Below are positions 25,789 to 61,564 of a DNA stretch of 64,000 bases, one piece after another. This stretch comes from Galerina marginata. Lineage: Eukaryota; Basidiomycota; Agaricomycetes; Agaricales; Galerinaceae. Each line of letters starts with the position of its first letter. The stretch's first letter is position 1. A program made the translations under genes and the position numbers. The notes beneath the pieces were generated by a model, which saw only the letters and a program-made list of their open reading frames with translations, did not search any database and was not told the DNA's origin. The stretch spans positions 2,170,001-2,234,000 of the forward strand of contig JAECYW010000012.1 in the NCBI GenBank assembly GCA_023014335.1. The letters are read 5' to 3'.

Positions 25789-27113
25789 ATGCATTTCCGC
25801 ACAGCTCTGTCTGTTCTGTTCGCTTTGATCTCCGCACAAGGTAGGCTTGGCTTAGCTCATTTTCGCATTTAATTGATTCGTGTAGATGTCCTTAGTGCTC
25901 CGATCGTTACTGTGGAGGTAAGTGGTGCGATGGAGAGGATTGAACGTGAGTCGATTGTCCAAATTGCCAGAAAGTTCGGAATGATCTCTCAACGTTCGCC
26001 TGGAATTTAGAGAAAAGTTTTCTTGCTAAGATGTTAGAAAACCCCAATGTCGTCTCTCGTTCTCGTAACAATCGTCGAGCAATCGTCGCTTCCAAGAAGA
26101 TTTCTACTAGTCCTGTCAAGGGAGGTCCAGCGGGCAGTCTCGGTACTCCAGTAAAACCAGGGTCGAATCCTGTCAAGGGAAGTCCGGCTGGTACACTTGG
26201 ATCTCCACATAAGCCAGACGGTAGTGGTCCAGTCAAAGGGAGTCAGGCGGGCAGTCTTACCCCAGGAAAGCCTGGCTCTGGTCCAGTGAAAGGCAGCCCG
26301 GCTGGTACGCTTGGATCTCCGTGGAAGCCAGATGGTACGAGTAGCGGTCCAGTCAAAGGCAGTCCAGCGGGTTCTCTTACTCCAGGAAAGCCTGGTTCAA
26401 GTCCAGTGAAAGGTAGTCCAGCCGGTACGAGTAGCGGTCCAGTCAAAGGCAGTCCAGCAGGTTCTCTTACTCCAGGAAAGCCTGGTTCAAGTCCAGTGAA
26501 AGGCAGCCCAGCCGGTACGCTTGGATCTCCGTGGAAGCAAGATGGTACGAGTAGCGGTCCAGTCAAAGGCAGTCCAGCAGGTTCTCTTACTCCAGGAACG
26601 CCTGGTTCAAATCCAGTGAAAGGCAGCCCAGCCGGTACGCTTGGATCTCCGTGGAAGCCAGATGCTACGAGTAGCGGTCCAGTCAAAGGCAGTCCAGCAG
26701 GCTCTCTTACTCCAGGAAGGCCTGGTTCGAGTCCAGTGAAAGGCAGCCCAGCAGGTACACTTGGAGGTGGTCCGGTGCAGGGTAGTCCAGCAGGTGGTTT
26801 TGGTGGCTCTGGCACTAGTTCAGCCGGTGGAAGTTCGGTTGGTACTTGGAAGCCTGATGGTAGCGGTCCGGTGAAGGGCAGTCCTGCAAGTGGTTTTGGT
26901 GGTTCAGGTTCAGGTTCAACTCAAGGAAGTTCGGTAGGCACCTGGAAGCCAGACGGCCCTGTGAAGGGTACTCATGGAGGTCCTATCAGCTCCCCCGGAA
27001 AGCCAGGATCCAATCCTATCAAGGGAAACCCGGCAGGCACACTGCGTAGCCCTCCAAAACCAGTTCCAAAGCCACGAAACCTCCTTCGCATTCCTACTAC
27101 TCAGAAAATGTAG
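25789..27113 (+). CDS. secreted PVKGSPAG-repeat protein
   Basis: Three exons (25789-25840, 25886-25917, 26031-27113) give 388 residues. The N-terminus MHFRTALSVLFALISAQDVLSAP is a signal peptide. After a short region with one dibasic site (RNNRRAIVA), the rest is repeat. Sixteen copies of a P-V-K-G-S-P-A-G motif alternate in two flavours, ending SLTPGKPGS or TLGSPWKPDGTS, to make a higher-order unit of about 40 residues (120 bases). The repeat is rich in Gly, Pro, Ser and Lys, without Cys, and should be disordered and cationic. One unit near 26400-26440 is shortened. The repeats carry no KR/RR sites, so it differs from its convergent neighbour. A wall-bound or matrix role is possible but unsupported. 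No known family recognised. Confidence 0.8.
26113..27050. repeat. coding minisatellite, about 120-base higher-order unit
   Basis: Tandem array inside exon 3 of the secreted repeat gene. Units contain words such as GTCCAGTGAAAGGCAGCCC and GGTACGCTTGGATCTCCG. Neighbouring units near 26340-26700 are nearly identical, and outer ones are diverged, as expected when unequal exchange acts mainly in the centre. Confidence 0.85.
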
Positions 27114-27841
27114 GGCAAGTCTATCATCCCACGAATCCGACTGGTCAGCGCAATCCCGCCATGTTCTAGCGTCAACCCAAACTGACACCTGGTTTGGTCA
27201 GCGTAATCCCAAGATTGATCATGATTTATGTATCGCATTACGACCACTTATTTGAATTCCATTGGTTGCCAATAGGAAGCTTTGGTGTTGAAGAGAATAT
27301 TCATAATCGATGACGATACGATGATGGGTACGATCAAAATCATAGTTTTTCGATTGGAGGCAGCGACGTCATATTATCTATCCGAGTTTCTTGTGATAAG
27401 TATTGTGCTTCGCTGATATACAGAGTCCTGCAGCCGTTAATTGCTGAACCTGTCAACTTTGTACTCGACTATCTCAGTGCTAGTGACAGAGAGACAAAGA
27501 CGACGAATGCTTTACGGTTCCGATGGTTTTTGTTAAAACAAAACATTCAATTGTAATCAATAACCTGAGCGTGGTACAGCTTTTTTAACTACATATCAGA
27601 GGCTACCAGTCTTTTGTTCTTGGAAATGATACAACTAATCAAGACAAGGAGGGGATTTCGTGTGATTTCGGTTTTCGTCGAAGGGCTCGTATGTCCTAGT
27701 GGTACAAAGAAAGGAGCAAGGAACCGGAAGGATAAAACGTTTCATAAGAGAAGGAAATGGGGAGCAGACCTGGGAATAGAATCGACGACAAGGGAAGTTG
27801 ATAAAGGGTATCCGGCGGGTAGACAAACCGTAGTTGTTCCA
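27114..27841. other. spacer between two convergent repeat-protein genes
   Basis: Both flanking genes end here, so it should hold two 3' UTRs. The left half is AT-rich with several AATAAA-like stretches. No gene is supported. Confidence 0.5.
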
Positions 27842-29738
27842 TCAAAGTGCCCGCCCGCTGCGAGAACCGTTTCGAGAATCTCCATGGCGGCGACGTTCTA
27901 GGGCACGTCCGCTGCGAGACCCGTTCCTTTCGCCGGAACCGTGTCGCCGGGCCTCGAGAGCGCGGCCACTGCGAGAACCGTTCCTTTCTCCAGATCCATG
28001 ACGACGGGCCTCAAGGGCGCGACCACTGCGAGAACCGTTCCTTTCTCCAGAACCGTGACGGCGGGCCTCAAGGGCGCGACCACTGCGAGAGCCATTCCTC
28101 TCTCCGGAACCGTGACGACGGGCTTCGAGATCGCGGCCACTGCGAGATCCATTCCTCTCCCCAGAACCGTGGCGGCGAGCCTCAAGGGCGCGTCCGCTGC
28201 GAGAACCGTTTCGAGAATCTCCGTGACGGCGACGCTCTAGGGCACGACCGCTGCGAGAGCCATTCCTTTCTCCGGAACCGTGTCGGCGGGCTTCGAGGGC
28301 TCGCCCGCTACGAGATCCATTCCTCTCCCCAGAACCGTGGCGGCGAGCTTCAAGGGCCCGTCCGCTGCGTGAACCGTTCCTTTCTCCAGAGCCGTGTCGA
28401 CGAGCTTCGAGAGCACGACCGCTGCGAGAGCCGTTCCTCTCTCCAGAACCATGACGACGGGCTTCGAGATCGCGGCCACTGCGAGATCCATTCCTTTCTC
28501 CAGAACCATGACGGCGTGCCTCAAGAGCGCGTCCACTGCGTGAGCCGTTCCTCTCTCCTGAGCCGTGGCGGCGGGCTTCGAGAGCGCGACCGCTGCGAGA
28601 TCCGTTCCGCTCTCCGGAACCATGGCGGCGAGCTTCTAGATCACGTCCACTACGAGAGCCGTTCCTTTCGCCTGAGCCGTGACGACGGGCTTCGAGAGCG
28701 CGTCCGCTGCGAGATCCGTTCCGTTCTCCAGAACCGTGGCGGCGGGCTTCGAGAGCACGACCACTGCGAGAGCCATTCCTCTCTCCGGAACCGTGACGGC
28801 GGGCTTCGAGGGCTCGACCGCTGCGAGATCCGTTCCTTTCTCCAGAACCGTGTCGGCGGGCCTCAAGGTCGCGACCGCTGCGAGAGCCATTCCTCTCTCC
28901 GGAACCGTGGCGGCGGGCTTCAAGGTCACGGCCACTACGAGAGCCGTTCCTTTCGCCTGAGCCGTGACGACGAGCTTCGAGAGCGCGTCCGCTGCGAGAT
29001 CCATTCCGTTCTCCAGAACCGTGGCGGCGGGCCTCGAGAGCACGACCACTACGAGATCCGTTCCTTTCGCCAGAACCATGGCGGCGGGCTTCGAGGGCGC
29101 GACCGCTGCGAGAGCCATTCCTTTCTCCAGAACCGTGTCGGCGGGCCTCAAGGTCGCGACCACTGCGAGAGCCATTCCTCTCTCCGGAACCGTGGCGGCG
29201 GGCTTCAAGGTCACGGCCACTACGAGAGCCGTTCCTTTCGCCTGAGCCGTGGCGACGGGCTTCGAGATCGCGTCCACTACGAGATCCGTTCCTTTCACCA
29301 GAACCATGGCGGCGAGATTCAAGGGCGCGACCGCTGCGAGAGCCATTCCTTTCTCCAGAGCCGTGACGGCGAGCCTCAAGGGCACGACCACTGCGAGAGC
29401 CGTTCCTCTCTCCTGAGCCGTGGCGGCGGGCCTCGAGATCGCGACCACTACGAGAACCGTTCCTTTCTCCAGAACCATGGCGGCGTGCCTCAAGAGCGCG
29501 TCCACTGCGAGAGCCATTCCTCTCTCCTGAGCCATGGCGGCGTGCTTCGATCTTGAATGGCTCTCTAGCGACTAGGACGTCGCGAGTGGCTAAGTCGGCG
29601 CCAAAAGGTGCAACCTAACATGGTAGCTCAGGTTAGGACAATAGATGGGAAGGAAAAGAAATAGAAACTTACAGGGATGGCGTGTGCCGTCAAGACGGCA
29701 GCGAGAACGAAGGCGATAAAGCTCTTGTTAAACTGCAT
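27842..29738 (-). CDS. secreted 30-copy repeat precursor with Arg-Arg sites (KEP-like)
   Basis: Exon 1 (29738-29673) encodes the signal peptide MQFNKSFIAFVLAAVLTAHAIP. A 58-base GT..AG intron (29672-29615) follows. Exon 2 (29614-27842) starts VAPFGADLATRDVLVAREPF and stays open for 590 codons to TGA 27842-27844, giving 612 residues. After a 26-residue leader ending IEARR come 30 units with consensus HGSGERNGSRSGRALEARR: 28 of 19 residues, one of 18 and a final 14. Position 14 is Ala or Asp and position 17 is Ala, Ser or Arg. Two units (18- and 14-residue) replace SGER by DSR; otherwise all are identical in protein while codons vary synonymously. Arg-Arg closing each full unit is a Kex2-type site, and each unit has an N-G-S sequon. 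Similar architecture is known from fungal Kex2-processed repeat proteins. Function unknown. Confidence 0.88.
27845..29536. repeat. 57-base coding minisatellite, 30 units
   Basis: Tandem array in exon 2 of the - strand precursor gene. The period is 57 bases, a multiple of three, so other frames on both strands also stay open by chance for hundreds of codons. The differences between units fall at synonymous positions of the - strand frame that ends at 27842, for example GGT/GGC/GGA/GGG for Gly and CTC/CTT/CTA for Leu. Two units (the 18- and 14-residue ones) carry the same 3-base loss and substitutions. Confidence 0.92.
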
Positions 29739-32009
29739 TGTGGTAGTTGGTGGCTGATCGGTTCTGTCTTGTTAGAGCAAAGCTGTATGAGAGCGAATCA
29801 ATGCTGAGATCGAGACTGGAGAAAGAAACTCGAGAGATGGTGGTTTTTATAGCCCTCAGGAATATGTCTAGGACACGGAAGGTGAGCATAATTTTCTATT
29901 GAGGTCAGAAACATTGACCTTGGCATCAGGATTACCACCGTTATTCATACGCACACAGTCTGCAACAAAAGACGAAAATATCACGCCAAGATAGGTTTGA
30001 AATCCGTGTCAACATAGCAAATTTGTATAATAATGTCACCTGGATGAATGAATATTCATGGATCCTTGAGGAAGATGTCGAACATCTGAACGTGAAACCA
30101 GATGTCGAAAGTTTACGTCAATTCAAGGACAAAGTCGACGAATGTAAACCCTCGCACGAGTAGCTCGGTAAAGACAGCATCGGGTGGATATTCCTGGAGT
30201 ATGACCGCCGGTACGACTGGGTGATTTCCACAAGAATTAACAATGGCGACACATCTCCAAAGAATTCGTCAATGTCACTGTCATCTTGGATTTTCTAAGC
30301 GGACTGCGGAGCTGCGGTTTGGGAAGATTAATCTTTTGGAGGAGACCAAGCCAAGTACTTCCCATGTTACCATTGCGCTCGGACGACCTTGTTTCGAGCT
30401 AACGCCAAGAGCAGAACAGTAGAAACGCGGTGCAAGAAAGGCAGACTAAACTAGGAAAATGGTCAGCGTTGGTAGGATCTAGGCACCGAAGCAACTCAAG
30501 AATCACAACTGTCAGACTCAATGCAGCGGGAGTATGATCAAAGGCACTAGGAGAGCTCCGAACAGAATCGGTATTCTCTCAAAAAATCCCGAGGTAAACA
30601 TCTGGTAAACGGGAAAGAGAGGGCCCCGTTGGGTCTATAAATGAATTCGGGAGCCTCAAGGTGAAGCGCAGCACAACATAGAAAAGATATACTCTGCAAC
30701 AACCGGAATGATTAGCCAAGATCGAGAGAAAACAAAACTACAGATGTCACGATCGTAAAAGAAACAATTGTCGCACAGGATGGGATGGAAAACCACAGCA
30801 GTGGACCCGAGCATGAGTTGGTTCCCAGAAACCCGGAACTTCAAGCAACCAGCGTCGTGTATGGCGTATTTGATATGTAACAACGAAATATTTTGACTTT
30901 GCTTGCGTCGGAAATATTCGAGGTATTGGCCACCCGAGAATTGAGAGCATACACCAGCCGCTCGGTACTGTTTCCCAAACTTCGTGTATGGAACGGAGTA
31001 TTTTTCAGGCTATAATTTGAGCAAGAATTCCGGAAATGAATTGACGGGTTAGAGAGGGAGAAACTGTACACACATTGCTATAAGACGCTTCAATTGGCAG
31101 TGGGCTTTGAAGGCAAGACAGAGGCGGCAGAGTTCAACTGGAAGCAGAGTTTTTCAAGGTCGGCGTCATGCCAGAAAGCAAGCGGATGTTGTGACACATC
31201 ACGTGTCACGTCACAAATATAATTAGTCACGCTCGATGTCCCACTCACCGACCTGGGTCAGAAGAACGTCTATCTTACCCGAACCACACGTACAGCATGT
31301 AAACTACCTACTCTGGCGGAAACCTCATAGAACAAGTCCAGTTCCATCAAGTCCCGTGTTTAACTATAGCGCCCGCAGGCCCAGGGGATCCAGTGGGAAA
31401 GCACTCCTAGTCCTACAACTTGTCCTTGACCGTGTACGGTTAACTGGAAGTAGTAGTCACAGAAACACGATCGCGAGCAAGGCCACCGTGTAAGCTGTAT
31501 GCAGTGGTCTATACTCGTCAGATCGGATGACTTCTGTGTAGTTTCACTTGGCGCTAGTCCTAAGAGTGAGGGACTTCCATTCGGTACTTTTCACATCAGA
31601 CCTTTCTTGTACTTGTAAGCGCACTTACACGCTACGCAAACGCTACAAAGCCGGGATTCAAGCTGCGGAAAATGACATATGCAGGATCAGACTCAAGCAT
31701 TTGACGTGAAATTGAATGGTTTCTCGAACACTAGGCTGCAGCGCTTTGGGGTGATTCATTTCCGCTGAGTATCGTTTAGGGTTTCACATTGCCTCTTTAC
31801 CTGCCAACCAATAACCTTATGTAGGTCCGCTCAGGGCAAGCCGTCAACTGTTGCGGCGCTGACTCTGCCTCGTTCTTGCCTGTAAGAGTTCATGTGCCGC
31901 TGACCATTCCTTCGAGAGTCCAGTGAAGCTATTTAGACAGCTGTATCGGCCAGGTTCTTTACGATTTCACGGTCTCCCTTGGTTCCGAGCCCCAGATTAC
32001 CCAGCCACC
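29739..32009. other. 2.3 kb spacer between divergent secreted-protein genes
   Basis: Promoter region of the KEP-like gene on the left and of the small Ser/Thr-rich gene on the right. Frames of 65-85 codons occur on both strands (for example 31236-31493), without domains. An inverted repeat GTGACAC/GTGTCAC with a central CACGTG lies near 31190-31210 and could bind a bHLH factor. No gene is supported. Confidence 0.4.
29844..29851 (-). promoter_or_regulatory. TATA box of the KEP-like repeat gene
   Basis: On the - strand the sequence reads TATAAAAA about 105 bases upstream of the ATG at 29738. Its position suits a strong, regulated secreted-protein promoter. Inferred from sequence and distance only. 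Confidence 0.55.
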
Positions 32010-60023: not shown

Positions 60024-60140
60024 CTAAAACCTGTCTCGTCCTCCGCCAAAGCTGTCTCGTCCTCCACCATAACTGTCCCGCCCTCCACCATAGCTATCCC
60101 GTCCTCCACCATAGCTATCCCGCCCTCCTCCGCCTCCTCC
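60024..60140 (-). repeat. short RDSYGGG-encoding tandem repeat
   Basis: The 3' end of the RRM gene has a 21-base repeat encoding RDSYGGG about four times, next to a poly-Gly run. Such Gly/Tyr/Arg tails are common in RNA-binding proteins. Confidence 0.8.
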
Positions 60141-61220
60141 TCCATAGCCACCCCGGCTATCTTCTCGATCCCCACGATATTCCCTCGACGTATAATGTGC
60201 ACGCCTCGGCGACCGCTCCTGACGGGGGTTGTTCCTCCTGTTCCCAGGAACATTGCCCTCCTTACGCGCACGGGCATACGAGAGGCGGATGGTCTCGCCG
60301 TCCTCGAGCTGTGAGCCGTCAAGCTTGTTGATCACCTCCGTGGCGGTCTCGACGTCTTTGAACTCGACGAAGCCAGAGTTAAGCTTCTCGCCCGTGTTGC
60401 CGTCACGCACTGTTGGGGGCTGGGTTAGTGAATGTTTTTTTGGTCGAAAAAAACAAGGAAGTGTCAAAGCCAAAGGTTAGACCCAAGATAACCCAAGGCA
60501 GACGGAAAAGTAAAACAAGCCGAGAAATAAGGAGAAAAACTCACTGAAGAAAACGCTAACGATCGAGTCGCCAAACTCTCCGAAAAAGTTTCGCAGCGCC
60601 GGTTCGTCCGCCGAGAAGCGGTTGAAGTACATCCTCGGGCTGGGGTCCGCCCGAGTGTACGTCGATGCCGGCTGGCGCGCGTAGTCCACGACGAGGTCGC
60701 GCCCTGAGACGTGCAGGGGCTCCTCCCGCGCGGAGGTAACGGCAGCGATGGCGCTGTCCTTGCTCACAAAGGTGACGTGCGCGAAGCCGCGTGGCCGTCC
60801 GTCCGCGTGTGTTTCTGCAGGTTGTAAGTATACGAGAAGGGCGACGGTGAGCATGTGTTGGTTGAAAACGGGAGAGAAAGAAAACTTACGCAGCCGGACA
60901 TTGTCCACCTCCCCGAACTCGGCGAACATATCCGCCAGGTCCTCCTTCGTCATGCTCCAAGGCATATTGCCAATGTATATCGACACTGAGGGGTCAGTCG
61001 GTGCCACATCCCGCTCTCGCTCCTCGTAGCACAACACACGCGCTGACGAGAACGTACGCGACGACACCGCGAGCCGTGACACTGACACTGACACGGGTGC
61101 GGCAGGAACAGCTTGTCGAACGAGGAAGGAGCTGAGACTCCTCGACGCGGGCACTGCTGTTGAGCGGGCTGTGCTGAGCAGGCTGAGGCGGGCCTGCGAG
61201 CGGAGGGCGCTTGAGAACAT
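60024..61220 (-). CDS. mitochondrial-type RNA-binding protein with two RRMs and a Gly-rich tail
   Basis: Three exons (61220-60890, 60814-60545, 60409-60024) give 328 residues. The N-terminus MFSSALRSQARLSLLSTARSTAVPASRSLSSF is rich in Ser, Ala and Arg with no acidic residues, a likely mitochondrial presequence. RRM1 starts SVSIYIGNMPWSMTKEDLADMF (RNP2) and has RGFAHVTFV (RNP1). RRM2 is recognisable by RMYFNRFSADEPALRNFFGEF and SGFVEFKDVETA. The tail after KEGNVPGNRRNNPRQERS is Gly-rich with repeats of RDSYGGG, ending FGGGRDRF. It should bind RNA, perhaps mitochondrial transcripts. The start ATG 61218-61220 was chosen because the presequence begins there. Confidence 0.9.
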
Positions 61221-61564
61221 GCTTTTTTTGGTGGTTGGTGTTGTGGGAGGAGGGAAGGGGTATTCTGCAGAAAACCAAATTCGAGAAAAGTTTTCGACAC
61301 CCAGCACGTGACGTGTATCCCTGAGCTGCATTCAACAGTTGGCGGCGGCGACCACTGACGGCATTCAAATTCTAAATTAAATACTGGAGAAATGGGAGCG
61401 AAAAAAGGGAGGAAAGTACAACCGTACAAGACCAAAATGTCTACAAAAAGGGAATTATTAGTACAGTTATTACAGAAGATGCCGACAGATTACAACTTTT
61501 ACAACACTATCGTACAGCAATGGTACATACAATGTCCCGAGGTATCAAAGTAGTCCAAATATTT
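61221..61564. other. short spacer
   Basis: About 340 bases upstream of the RRM gene, downstream of the next - strand gene. Nothing is seen beyond likely promoter and 3' UTR sequence. Confidence 0.5.

What the first reader, a model, noticed from the sequence alone, without database searches (positions are those of the whole stretch)
27842..29738. Hidden 612-residue secreted precursor with 30 near-identical Arg-Arg-terminated repeats
The start codon and signal peptide sit in a 66-base exon, and the 1773-base repeat exon has no Met codon, so ATG-based ORF calling reports only shadow frames. Reading the - strand shows a signal peptide, a short leader ending ARR, then 30 units of consensus HGSGERNGSRSGRALEARR. 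Variation between units falls almost entirely at synonymous codon positions in this frame only, a sign that the peptide is under selection. Each full unit ends in Arg-Arg (Kex2-type) and contains an N-G-S sequon. Known fungal Kex2-processed repeat proteins include RiPP precursors (dikaritins such as ustiloxins) and pheromone precursors, but dikaritin cores need Tyr, and these units lack Tyr, Trp, Cys and Lys. The predicted product, a basic 17-residue peptide, fits no class I know.
Basis: partly seen in the sequence, partly recalled or inferred. Interest (0 to 1): 0.92.

Follow-up and report, generated by a model that had tools for sequence, protein, structure and literature searches.

The report
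Mushroom gene encoding thirty-fold repeated peptide
A fungus, likely a mushroom-forming one, carries what is very likely a gene, predicted to be split by one small intron, that strings together 30 almost identical short peptides which its Kex2 protease would likely cut apart for secretion; proteins with the same cut-site pattern are found in five orders of mushroom-forming fungi, so it is likely an old, unstudied family within a known class of fungal peptide precursors.

Summary
Minus strand 29738-27842 reads as a 66-nt signal-peptide exon, a 58-nt GT..AG intron and a 1773-nt repeat exon: 612 aa, 30 units of consensus HGSGERNGSRSGR(A/D)LEARR, 29 ending in Arg-Arg. Units differ almost only at silent sites (pN/pS 0.031); every other frame is far worse or interrupted. 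A second haplotype (C11) has exactly one 57-nt unit fewer and one amino-acid difference; a diverged paralogue (C41) keeps the exon-intron layout but is frame-disrupted. It does: KEX2-processed repeat proteins (KEPs). It is not a dikaritin: no Tyr, and none of the genome's 49 UstYa matches lies on the contigs that carry it. 21 database relatives (11 named species, five agaricomycete orders) share the cut-site grammar: RR, a core starting His-Gly, often a second dibasic site, a short acidic spacer, RR; 10 leaders compared match too. Here the second site is a single Arg, and the main amino-acid variation (A14/D14) falls in the spacer. Processing, product length and function are inferred. Verdict: very likely a real gene, new member of a known kind.

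The parts
29673..29738 (-). Exon 1: start codon and signal peptide MQFNKSFIAFVLAAVLTAHA-IP (predicted cut after AHA)
   Evidence: same 66-nt exon in the C11 haplotype (0 of 66 differences) and in the C41 paralogue
29615..29672 (-). Predicted phase-0 intron, GTAAGT...TTAG, 58 nt
   Evidence: C11 haplotype 58 nt with 1 difference; C41 paralogue has a 61-nt intron of different sequence at the same place
29537..29614 (-). Leader VAPFGADLATRDVLVAREPFKIEARR before the first unit
   Evidence: signal peptide plus leader resemble Psilocybe cyanescens P0008 (score 151, z 22.5 against shuffles)
27845..29536 (-). 30 tandem units of consensus HGSGERNGSRSGR(A/D)LEARR; 29 end in Arg-Arg
27842..27844 (-). Stop codon TGA after ...SGRAL
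29846..29851 (-). TATAAA box, 113 bases before the ATG (126 bases before it in the C41 paralogue)
29948..29991 (-). Upstream block shared with the C41 paralogue (82% over 44 bases), possible regulatory element
30291..30366 (-). Upstream block shared with the C41 paralogue (79% over 76 bases), possible regulatory element
30758..30832 (-). Upstream block shared with the C41 paralogue (77% over 75 bases), possible regulatory element

Best explanation
This is very likely a gene: 30 near-identical units whose differences are almost all silent are predicted to be spliced to a signal-peptide exon and to form a secreted precursor that Kex2 would likely cut after each Arg-Arg into many copies of one short His-Gly-starting peptide. 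It has the architecture of the KEX2-processed repeat proteins (KEPs). Shown: the open frame, the repeat, the silent-site pattern, the second haplotype, the paralogue, relatives with the same leader and cut-site grammar, and a kexin locus in the genome. Inferred: splicing, signal-peptide removal after AHA, Kex2 cleavage after RR, trimming of RR by a Kex1-like carboxypeptidase to give HGSGERNGSRSGR(A/D)LEA (17 aa), and possibly a further cut at the single Arg before (A/D)LEA, giving the invariant 13-residue core HGSGERNGSRSGR or its 12-residue form without the last Arg: in 25 of 67 units of relatives a dibasic site stands there and would free a short spacer that always holds Asp or Glu. Most likely role, a guess: a diffusible extracellular peptide made in many copies per transcript, acting as a signal between hyphae or toward neighbouring organisms. 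The role is less certain (about 0.4) than the precursor assignment (about 0.85).
For: Gene model and 30 units. pN/pS 0.031 among 28 units; other frames 3.2 to 727, or 0.10 with stops in 10 of 28 units. Second haplotype C11: exactly one 57-nt unit fewer, 20 third-position and 1 first-position differences, 1 amino-acid change. Paralogue on C41: same exon-1 length, intron place, matching leader, units varying at third positions (0.068/0.031/0.505 per codon position), three shared upstream blocks and a TATA box. Relatives: 21 proteins (both capped searches), 13 named, 11 species; all 21 score above every one of 200 shuffles of themselves against the family profile (four of the 21 helped to build it). 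For the 10 leaders compared, z is 5.8 to 22.5, with at most 1 of 1000 shuffles reaching the score. Spacer between two dibasic sites: 25 of 67 units, all 25 with Asp or Glu, mostly DLEA, ELDA or ELEA. Kexin: 3 P-domain places, one of which (C41:976112) lies beside an exon that matches yeast Kexin 1ot5 at 2.1e-69, with Peptidase_S8 and P domains; the other two were not followed. Serine carboxypeptidase pieces are present (43 matches). KEP peptides have been detected in Coprinopsis, Lentinula and Pleurotus, and products made in Pichia suggested single-Arg cuts (PMC9769878).
Against: No transcript, peptide or splice evidence is available here. The C41 paralogue is frame-disrupted, and two decayed pieces lie on C8 and C23, so not every copy is kept. 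A search with the leader alone (residues 1-56) found nothing at E <= 1 among 88 candidates. No partner gene was recognised, but only 27 of the window's 139 stop-to-stop frames of 100 codons or more were scanned for neighbours. Silent divergence between haplotypes in the array (pS 0.043) exceeds that of the flanks (upstream 6 of 798, downstream 19 of 672), so conversion between units may add changes. For Ramaria and Sanghuangporus kinship rests on the units; their models have no comparable start. Several relatives' gene models leave the repeat frame in their second half.
Confidence: 0.78

Rival explanations
1. The precursor is secreted but works mostly uncut, as a hydrophilic, disordered repeat protein of the cell wall or extracellular matrix; the Arg-Arg pairs are incidental or only partly used.
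For: Units are very hydrophilic (mean hydropathy -1.84); many fungal wall proteins are repetitive (recalled). Peptide release was not tested.
Against: Arg-Arg ends 29 of 30 units and does not vary in the 28 full ones; in relatives the dibasic pair and the Gly-containing start after it persist while the residues between differ, which an uncut matrix protein would not need.
Confidence: 0.13
2. It is a modified RiPP precursor of the dikaritin kind or a new kind, in which the released core is cyclised or otherwise altered by dedicated enzymes.
For: Signal peptide plus Kex2-separated repeats is also the dikaritin layout (PMC9769878). UstYa-family sequences exist in this genome (49 exon-level matches).
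Against: No Tyr in any of the 30 units; 0 of 49 UstYa matches lies on C4, C11 or C41; no tailoring enzyme among the 27 of 139 window frames scanned with Pfam.
Confidence: 0.05
3. The array is a non-coding GC-rich minisatellite, or codes on the plus strand; the open minus-strand frame is an accident of base composition.
For: Several frames are open across much of the array, including a 577-codon plus-strand frame.
Against: pN/pS 0.031 in this frame; the plus-strand frames have 11.4, 11.7, or 0.10 with stops in 10 of 28 units. Leader and signal peptide resemble those of other genera; the haplotypes differ in length by exactly one in-frame unit.
Confidence: 0.02

Closest known systems
KEX2-processed repeat proteins (KEPs) of Agaricomycetes, e.g. 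Lentinula edodes KEP 2599 and Coprinopsis cinerea KEP 497993 (PMC9769878)
   Same: Signal peptide, then repeats of a short core separated by dibasic Kex2 sites; function unknown.
   Different: Core sequences differ by eye: those detected peptides end in -AADW or are pyro-Gln peptides; here 30 copies, and cores start His-Gly, with no Gln at the N-terminus for pyroglutamate protection.
Ascomycete alpha-pheromone precursors and the alpha-like KEPs of basidiomycetes (PMC6339444, PMC9769878)
   Same: Multi-copy secreted peptide precursor cut by Kex2.
   Different: STE13 dipeptides (XA/XP) directly after the Kex2 site are absent: units start HG. No Trp in the units.
Dikaritin RiPP precursors (ustiloxin, phomopsin, asperipin-2a)
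   Same: Signal peptide and Kex2-separated repeats (PMC9769878).
   Different: No Tyr in the units, and no UstYa match on the contigs that carry the gene.
Ustilago maydis Rep1 peptides (amyloid-like fibrils in PMC9769878, hyphal wall properties in PMC6339444)
   Same: Multi-copy secreted peptide precursor cut by Kex2 in a basidiomycete.
   Different: Units here are 19 aa and strongly hydrophilic; Rep1 was not compared by sequence.

Membership tests
KEX2-processed repeat protein (KEP) | N-terminal signal peptide | tested here: met
   MQFNK-SFIAFVLAAVL-TAHA: hydrophobic stretch mean hydropathy 2.79, A-H-A before the presumed cut; signal and leader resemble those of 10 relatives compared. SignalP was not available.
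KEX2-processed repeat protein (KEP) | Repeated core peptides separated by dibasic Kex2 sites (KR, RR, KK) | tested here: met
   30 units, 29 ending in RR.
KEX2-processed repeat protein (KEP) | Kexin available in the organism | tested here: met
   3 P-domain places; one locus matches yeast Kexin (E 2.1e-69) with Peptidase_S8 and P domains.
KEX2-processed repeat protein (KEP) | Peptides actually released by Kex2 | not testable with these tools
   Needs peptidomics.
Dikaritin RiPP | Tyr in the core (recalled as defining) | tested here: not met
   0 of 30 units hold Tyr.
Dikaritin RiPP | UstYa (DUF3328) gene close by | tested here: not met
   0 of 49 matches at E <= 0.001 on C4, C11 or C41.
Alpha-pheromone-type KEP | XA/XP dipeptides directly after the Kex2 site | tested here: not met
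   Every unit starts HG.
His-Gly KEP family of Agaricomycetes (grouping proposed here) | Common ancestry of leader | tested here: met
   10 of 21 relatives' leaders compared: z 5.8 to 22.5, at most 1 of 1000 shuffles reaching the score. They come from 8 named species of Polyporales, Agaricales and Geastrales and 2 unnamed sources; the other 11 models have no comparable start or were not compared.
His-Gly KEP family of Agaricomycetes (grouping proposed here) | Likeness of whole proteins beyond composition | tested here: met
   21 of 21 relatives score above each of up to 200 scored shuffles of themselves; 4 of the 21 were in the profile. Shuffling also destroys repeats, so this excludes composition, not convergence of repeats.

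The most novel reading that the evidence does not exclude
The window shows one branch of an agaricomycete-wide peptide hormone: an ancient family of precursors, spread over Agaricales, Polyporales, Hymenochaetales, Gomphales and Geastrales, each releasing many copies of a His-Gly-starting peptide, with acidic spacers between cut sites, that mushroom-forming fungi use as a shared extracellular signal and that gene callers have largely missed because the start codon sits in a tiny exon and the repeat is low-complexity.
Probability: 0.3. Interest if true: 0.72.

Novelty: new member of a known kind. Interest (0 to 1): 0.48.

Why it matters
[quoted passage not shown] This family has recognisable members in five orders, a leader that can be traced, a conserved cut-site grammar, and exact peptide masses to look for, so a peptide-signal hypothesis for mushroom-forming fungi becomes testable. 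By its sequence, trypsin would break the units into pieces of at most 6 residues, which would hide it from standard proteomics, and its start codon lies in a 66-base exon, which hides it from simple ORF calling.

Tried and rejected
Rejected: non-coding minisatellite and plus-strand coding; dikaritin; STE13-type pheromone (no XA/XP after RR); N-glycosylation as the family's theme (sequon in 1 of 67 units of relatives); an RNA element near the gene (no Rfam match at gathering scores in 27000-32000; no tRNA in the window).

Led nowhere: Pfam on the repeat exon (no family); leader-only protein search (88 candidates, none at E <= 1); 27 of 139 window frames scanned with Pfam (10 each) showed no peptide-tailoring neighbour; six core strings of the family occur in none of the held papers' main texts.

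Weak points of my own counts: the 67 units of relatives were picked by a pattern that demands H or R followed by G after an Arg, so 63 of 67 starting with H is not an independent test; some of those units come from gene models that leave the frame. The profile held four relatives (P0001 whole, parts of P0002, P0004, P0005), three of which one search then found again. Both protein searches scored only the candidates sharing most words (7993 and 7987), so 21 relatives is a lower bound.

I had also overstated how far the paper on KEP types describes its types.

Full report
The finding. On the minus strand, 29738-27842, the window reads as a 66-nt exon (MQFNKSFIAFVLAAVLTAHAIP), a 58-nt intron GTAAGT...TTAG and a 1773-nt exon ending in TGA, 612 aa in all. 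Exon 2 gives a 26-residue leader ending EARR and 30 units: 28 of 19 aa, one of 18 aa and a last one of 14 aa; 29 of 30 end in RR, 30 of 30 hold NGS, none holds Y, W, C, K or M. The first 13 residues, HGSGERNGSRSGR, are identical in all 28 HGS units. Among the 28 full units only two positions vary in amino acid: position 14 (19 Ala, 9 Asp) and position 17 (25 Ala, 2 Arg, 1 Ser).

More than chance. Tandem Repeats Finder reports the array at period 57. Among 28 full units, 18 of 22 variable columns are third codon positions (P 4e-10, columns taken as independent); pS 0.61, pN 0.019, ratio 0.031. The other two minus-strand frames have ratios of 727 and 3.2; the plus-strand frames 11.4, 11.7 and 0.10. 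The 577-codon open plus-strand frame is not that frame.

Other copies in the same genome. The genome is 69.3 Mb in 43 contigs. A second haplotype on C11 (97% over 1.7 kb upstream) has the same gene, exactly one 57-nt unit shorter, with 20 third-position and 1 first-position differences and one amino-acid change. Exon 1 is identical, the intron has 1 of 58 differences, the flanks 6 of 798 upstream and 19 of 672 downstream. Silent divergence in the array (0.043) is thus higher than in either flank, perhaps because units convert one another; I have not tested that. A paralogue on C41 has a 66-nt exon 1 (MRFNKSFIAFVLTAVLSAHALP), a 61-nt intron at the same place and phase but of different sequence, a matching leader, and 26 readable units HGDSGERNGSRSGR...RR, again varying at third positions (0.068/0.031/0.505); unit spacing is off at four places in its first third, so it is frame-disrupted, by decay or by sequencing error. 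It has a TATA box 126 bases before its ATG (113 in the window gene) and shares three upstream blocks of 44, 76 and 75 bases at 77-82%. Genome searches with one flank of each copy hit only C4, C11 and C41 at the 76-base block, and C4 and C41 at the 75-base block, besides the query's own place and haplotype; the 44-base block was seen only in the direct comparison. Short decayed pieces lie on C8 and C23.

Relatives elsewhere. Two capped protein searches gave 21 distinct proteins (5, 19, 3 shared), 13 of them named: Lentinus brumalis, Cubamyces menziesii and lactineus, Gymnopilus junonius, Steccherinum ochraceum, Trametes sanguinea and punicea, Psilocybe cyanescens, Ramaria rubella, Sanghuangporus baumii and three of Sphaerobolus stellatus. 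Orders looked up: Agaricales (Psilocybe), Polyporales (Steccherinum), Hymenochaetales, Gomphales, Geastrales; the rest recalled. Leaders of 10 of the 21 were compared with the window's: z 5.8 to 22.5 against shuffles kept within signal and leader parts, at most 1 of 1000 shuffles as good; the best is Psilocybe cyanescens. These 10 cover Polyporales, Agaricales and Geastrales and two unnamed sources; for Ramaria and Sanghuangporus kinship rests on the units. As a control for composition, each of the 21 was scored against the family profile with 200 shuffles of itself: none of the scored shuffles reached the real score (real 44 to 239 bits, best shuffle 14.0; four of the 21 had helped to build the profile). 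A third search, with the leader alone, found nothing. In 67 units cut from the 21 relatives, 25 end in dibasic-spacer-dibasic (such as GRR-DLEA-RR), and all 25 spacers hold Asp or Glu, most of them DLEA, ELDA or ELEA; 32 units contain RGD and 1 has a sequon. The comparison suggests that the window's ALEA/DLEA is the spacer of its relatives, fused to the core because the cut site before it has shrunk to a single Arg.

How it probably works. The genome has kexin: three P-domain places, one beside a subtilase exon matching yeast Kexin at 2.1e-69, with both expected domains; the other two were not followed. It has serine carboxypeptidase sequences (43 exon-level matches), among which Kex1 was not singled out. 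For KEPs in general (PMC9769878: abstract, introduction, parts 1 and 2 of 3 of the results, and discussion read): the signal peptide is removed, Kex2 cuts after dibasic pairs, Kex1 trims, peptides are secreted; products in Pichia suggested single-Arg cuts. Applied here: about 28 copies of a 17-mer per precursor, or 13/12-mers if the single Arg is used. All of this is inferred for this gene. A role as extracellular signal toward other hyphae or organisms is my choice; knockouts of six C. cinerea KEPs had no visible phenotype in that paper.

What is known. KEPs were named in PMC6339444 (passages seen) and surveyed in PMC7329392 (passages, and section 6: 7878 KEPs in 1345 of 1461 strains, 838 types). 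Features that its text names for several widely shared types (Tyr-rich, Trp pairs, di-His) do not fit this family; other types are not described in the text, its figures are not held, and the full type table is supplementary and was not seen. Six core strings of this family are in none of the held main texts; the listings showed no paper on such a family. So: a member of a known class, in a family I could not find described.

Scores. Real gene: near certain. KEP precursor: about 0.85. Signalling role: about 0.4. Interest 0.48, higher (0.72) if the family proves to be a class-wide signal.

Noticed in passing
window 25950-27110 (+): Convergent neighbour: 387-codon open frame of PVKGSPAGSLTPGKPGSS-type repeats, no Pfam family. 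Between haplotypes it differs by 210 in-frame bases and at all codon positions (6/11/10), so selection on it looks weak or it may not be coding.
   Followed up: partly
window 29948-29991, 30291-30366, 30758-30832: Three upstream blocks conserved with the C41 paralogue although the sequence between is diverged; candidate shared regulatory elements.
   Followed up: partly
L010 (C41:2534500-2541500): Paralogue in which units ending ALEARR and ALERRR often alternate; frame-disrupted at four places in its first third; no second-haplotype copy found with its flank.
   Followed up: partly
L011 (C8) and L012 (C23): Short decayed pieces of the same repeat whose flanking translations resemble each other by eye, as if copied together.
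   Followed up: no
P0001-P0021: 32 of 67 units in relatives contain Arg-Gly-Asp; the window's units do not. Whether this is more than composition was not tested.
   Followed up: no
P0002, P0004, P0005, P0009: Database gene models start in the repeat frame and then, by eye, continue in another frame of what looks like the same repeat, so annotation of this family is probably unreliable.
   Followed up: no
whole genome G000: 49 exon-level UstYa matches, several close together (for example on C43, C23, C39, C28): possible dikaritin-like clusters elsewhere in this genome.
   Followed up: no
window 60031-60128: Tandem repeat of period 21, 4.7 copies, 88% match, about 350 bases from a frame with RRM domains at 60480-61331.
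   Followed up: no
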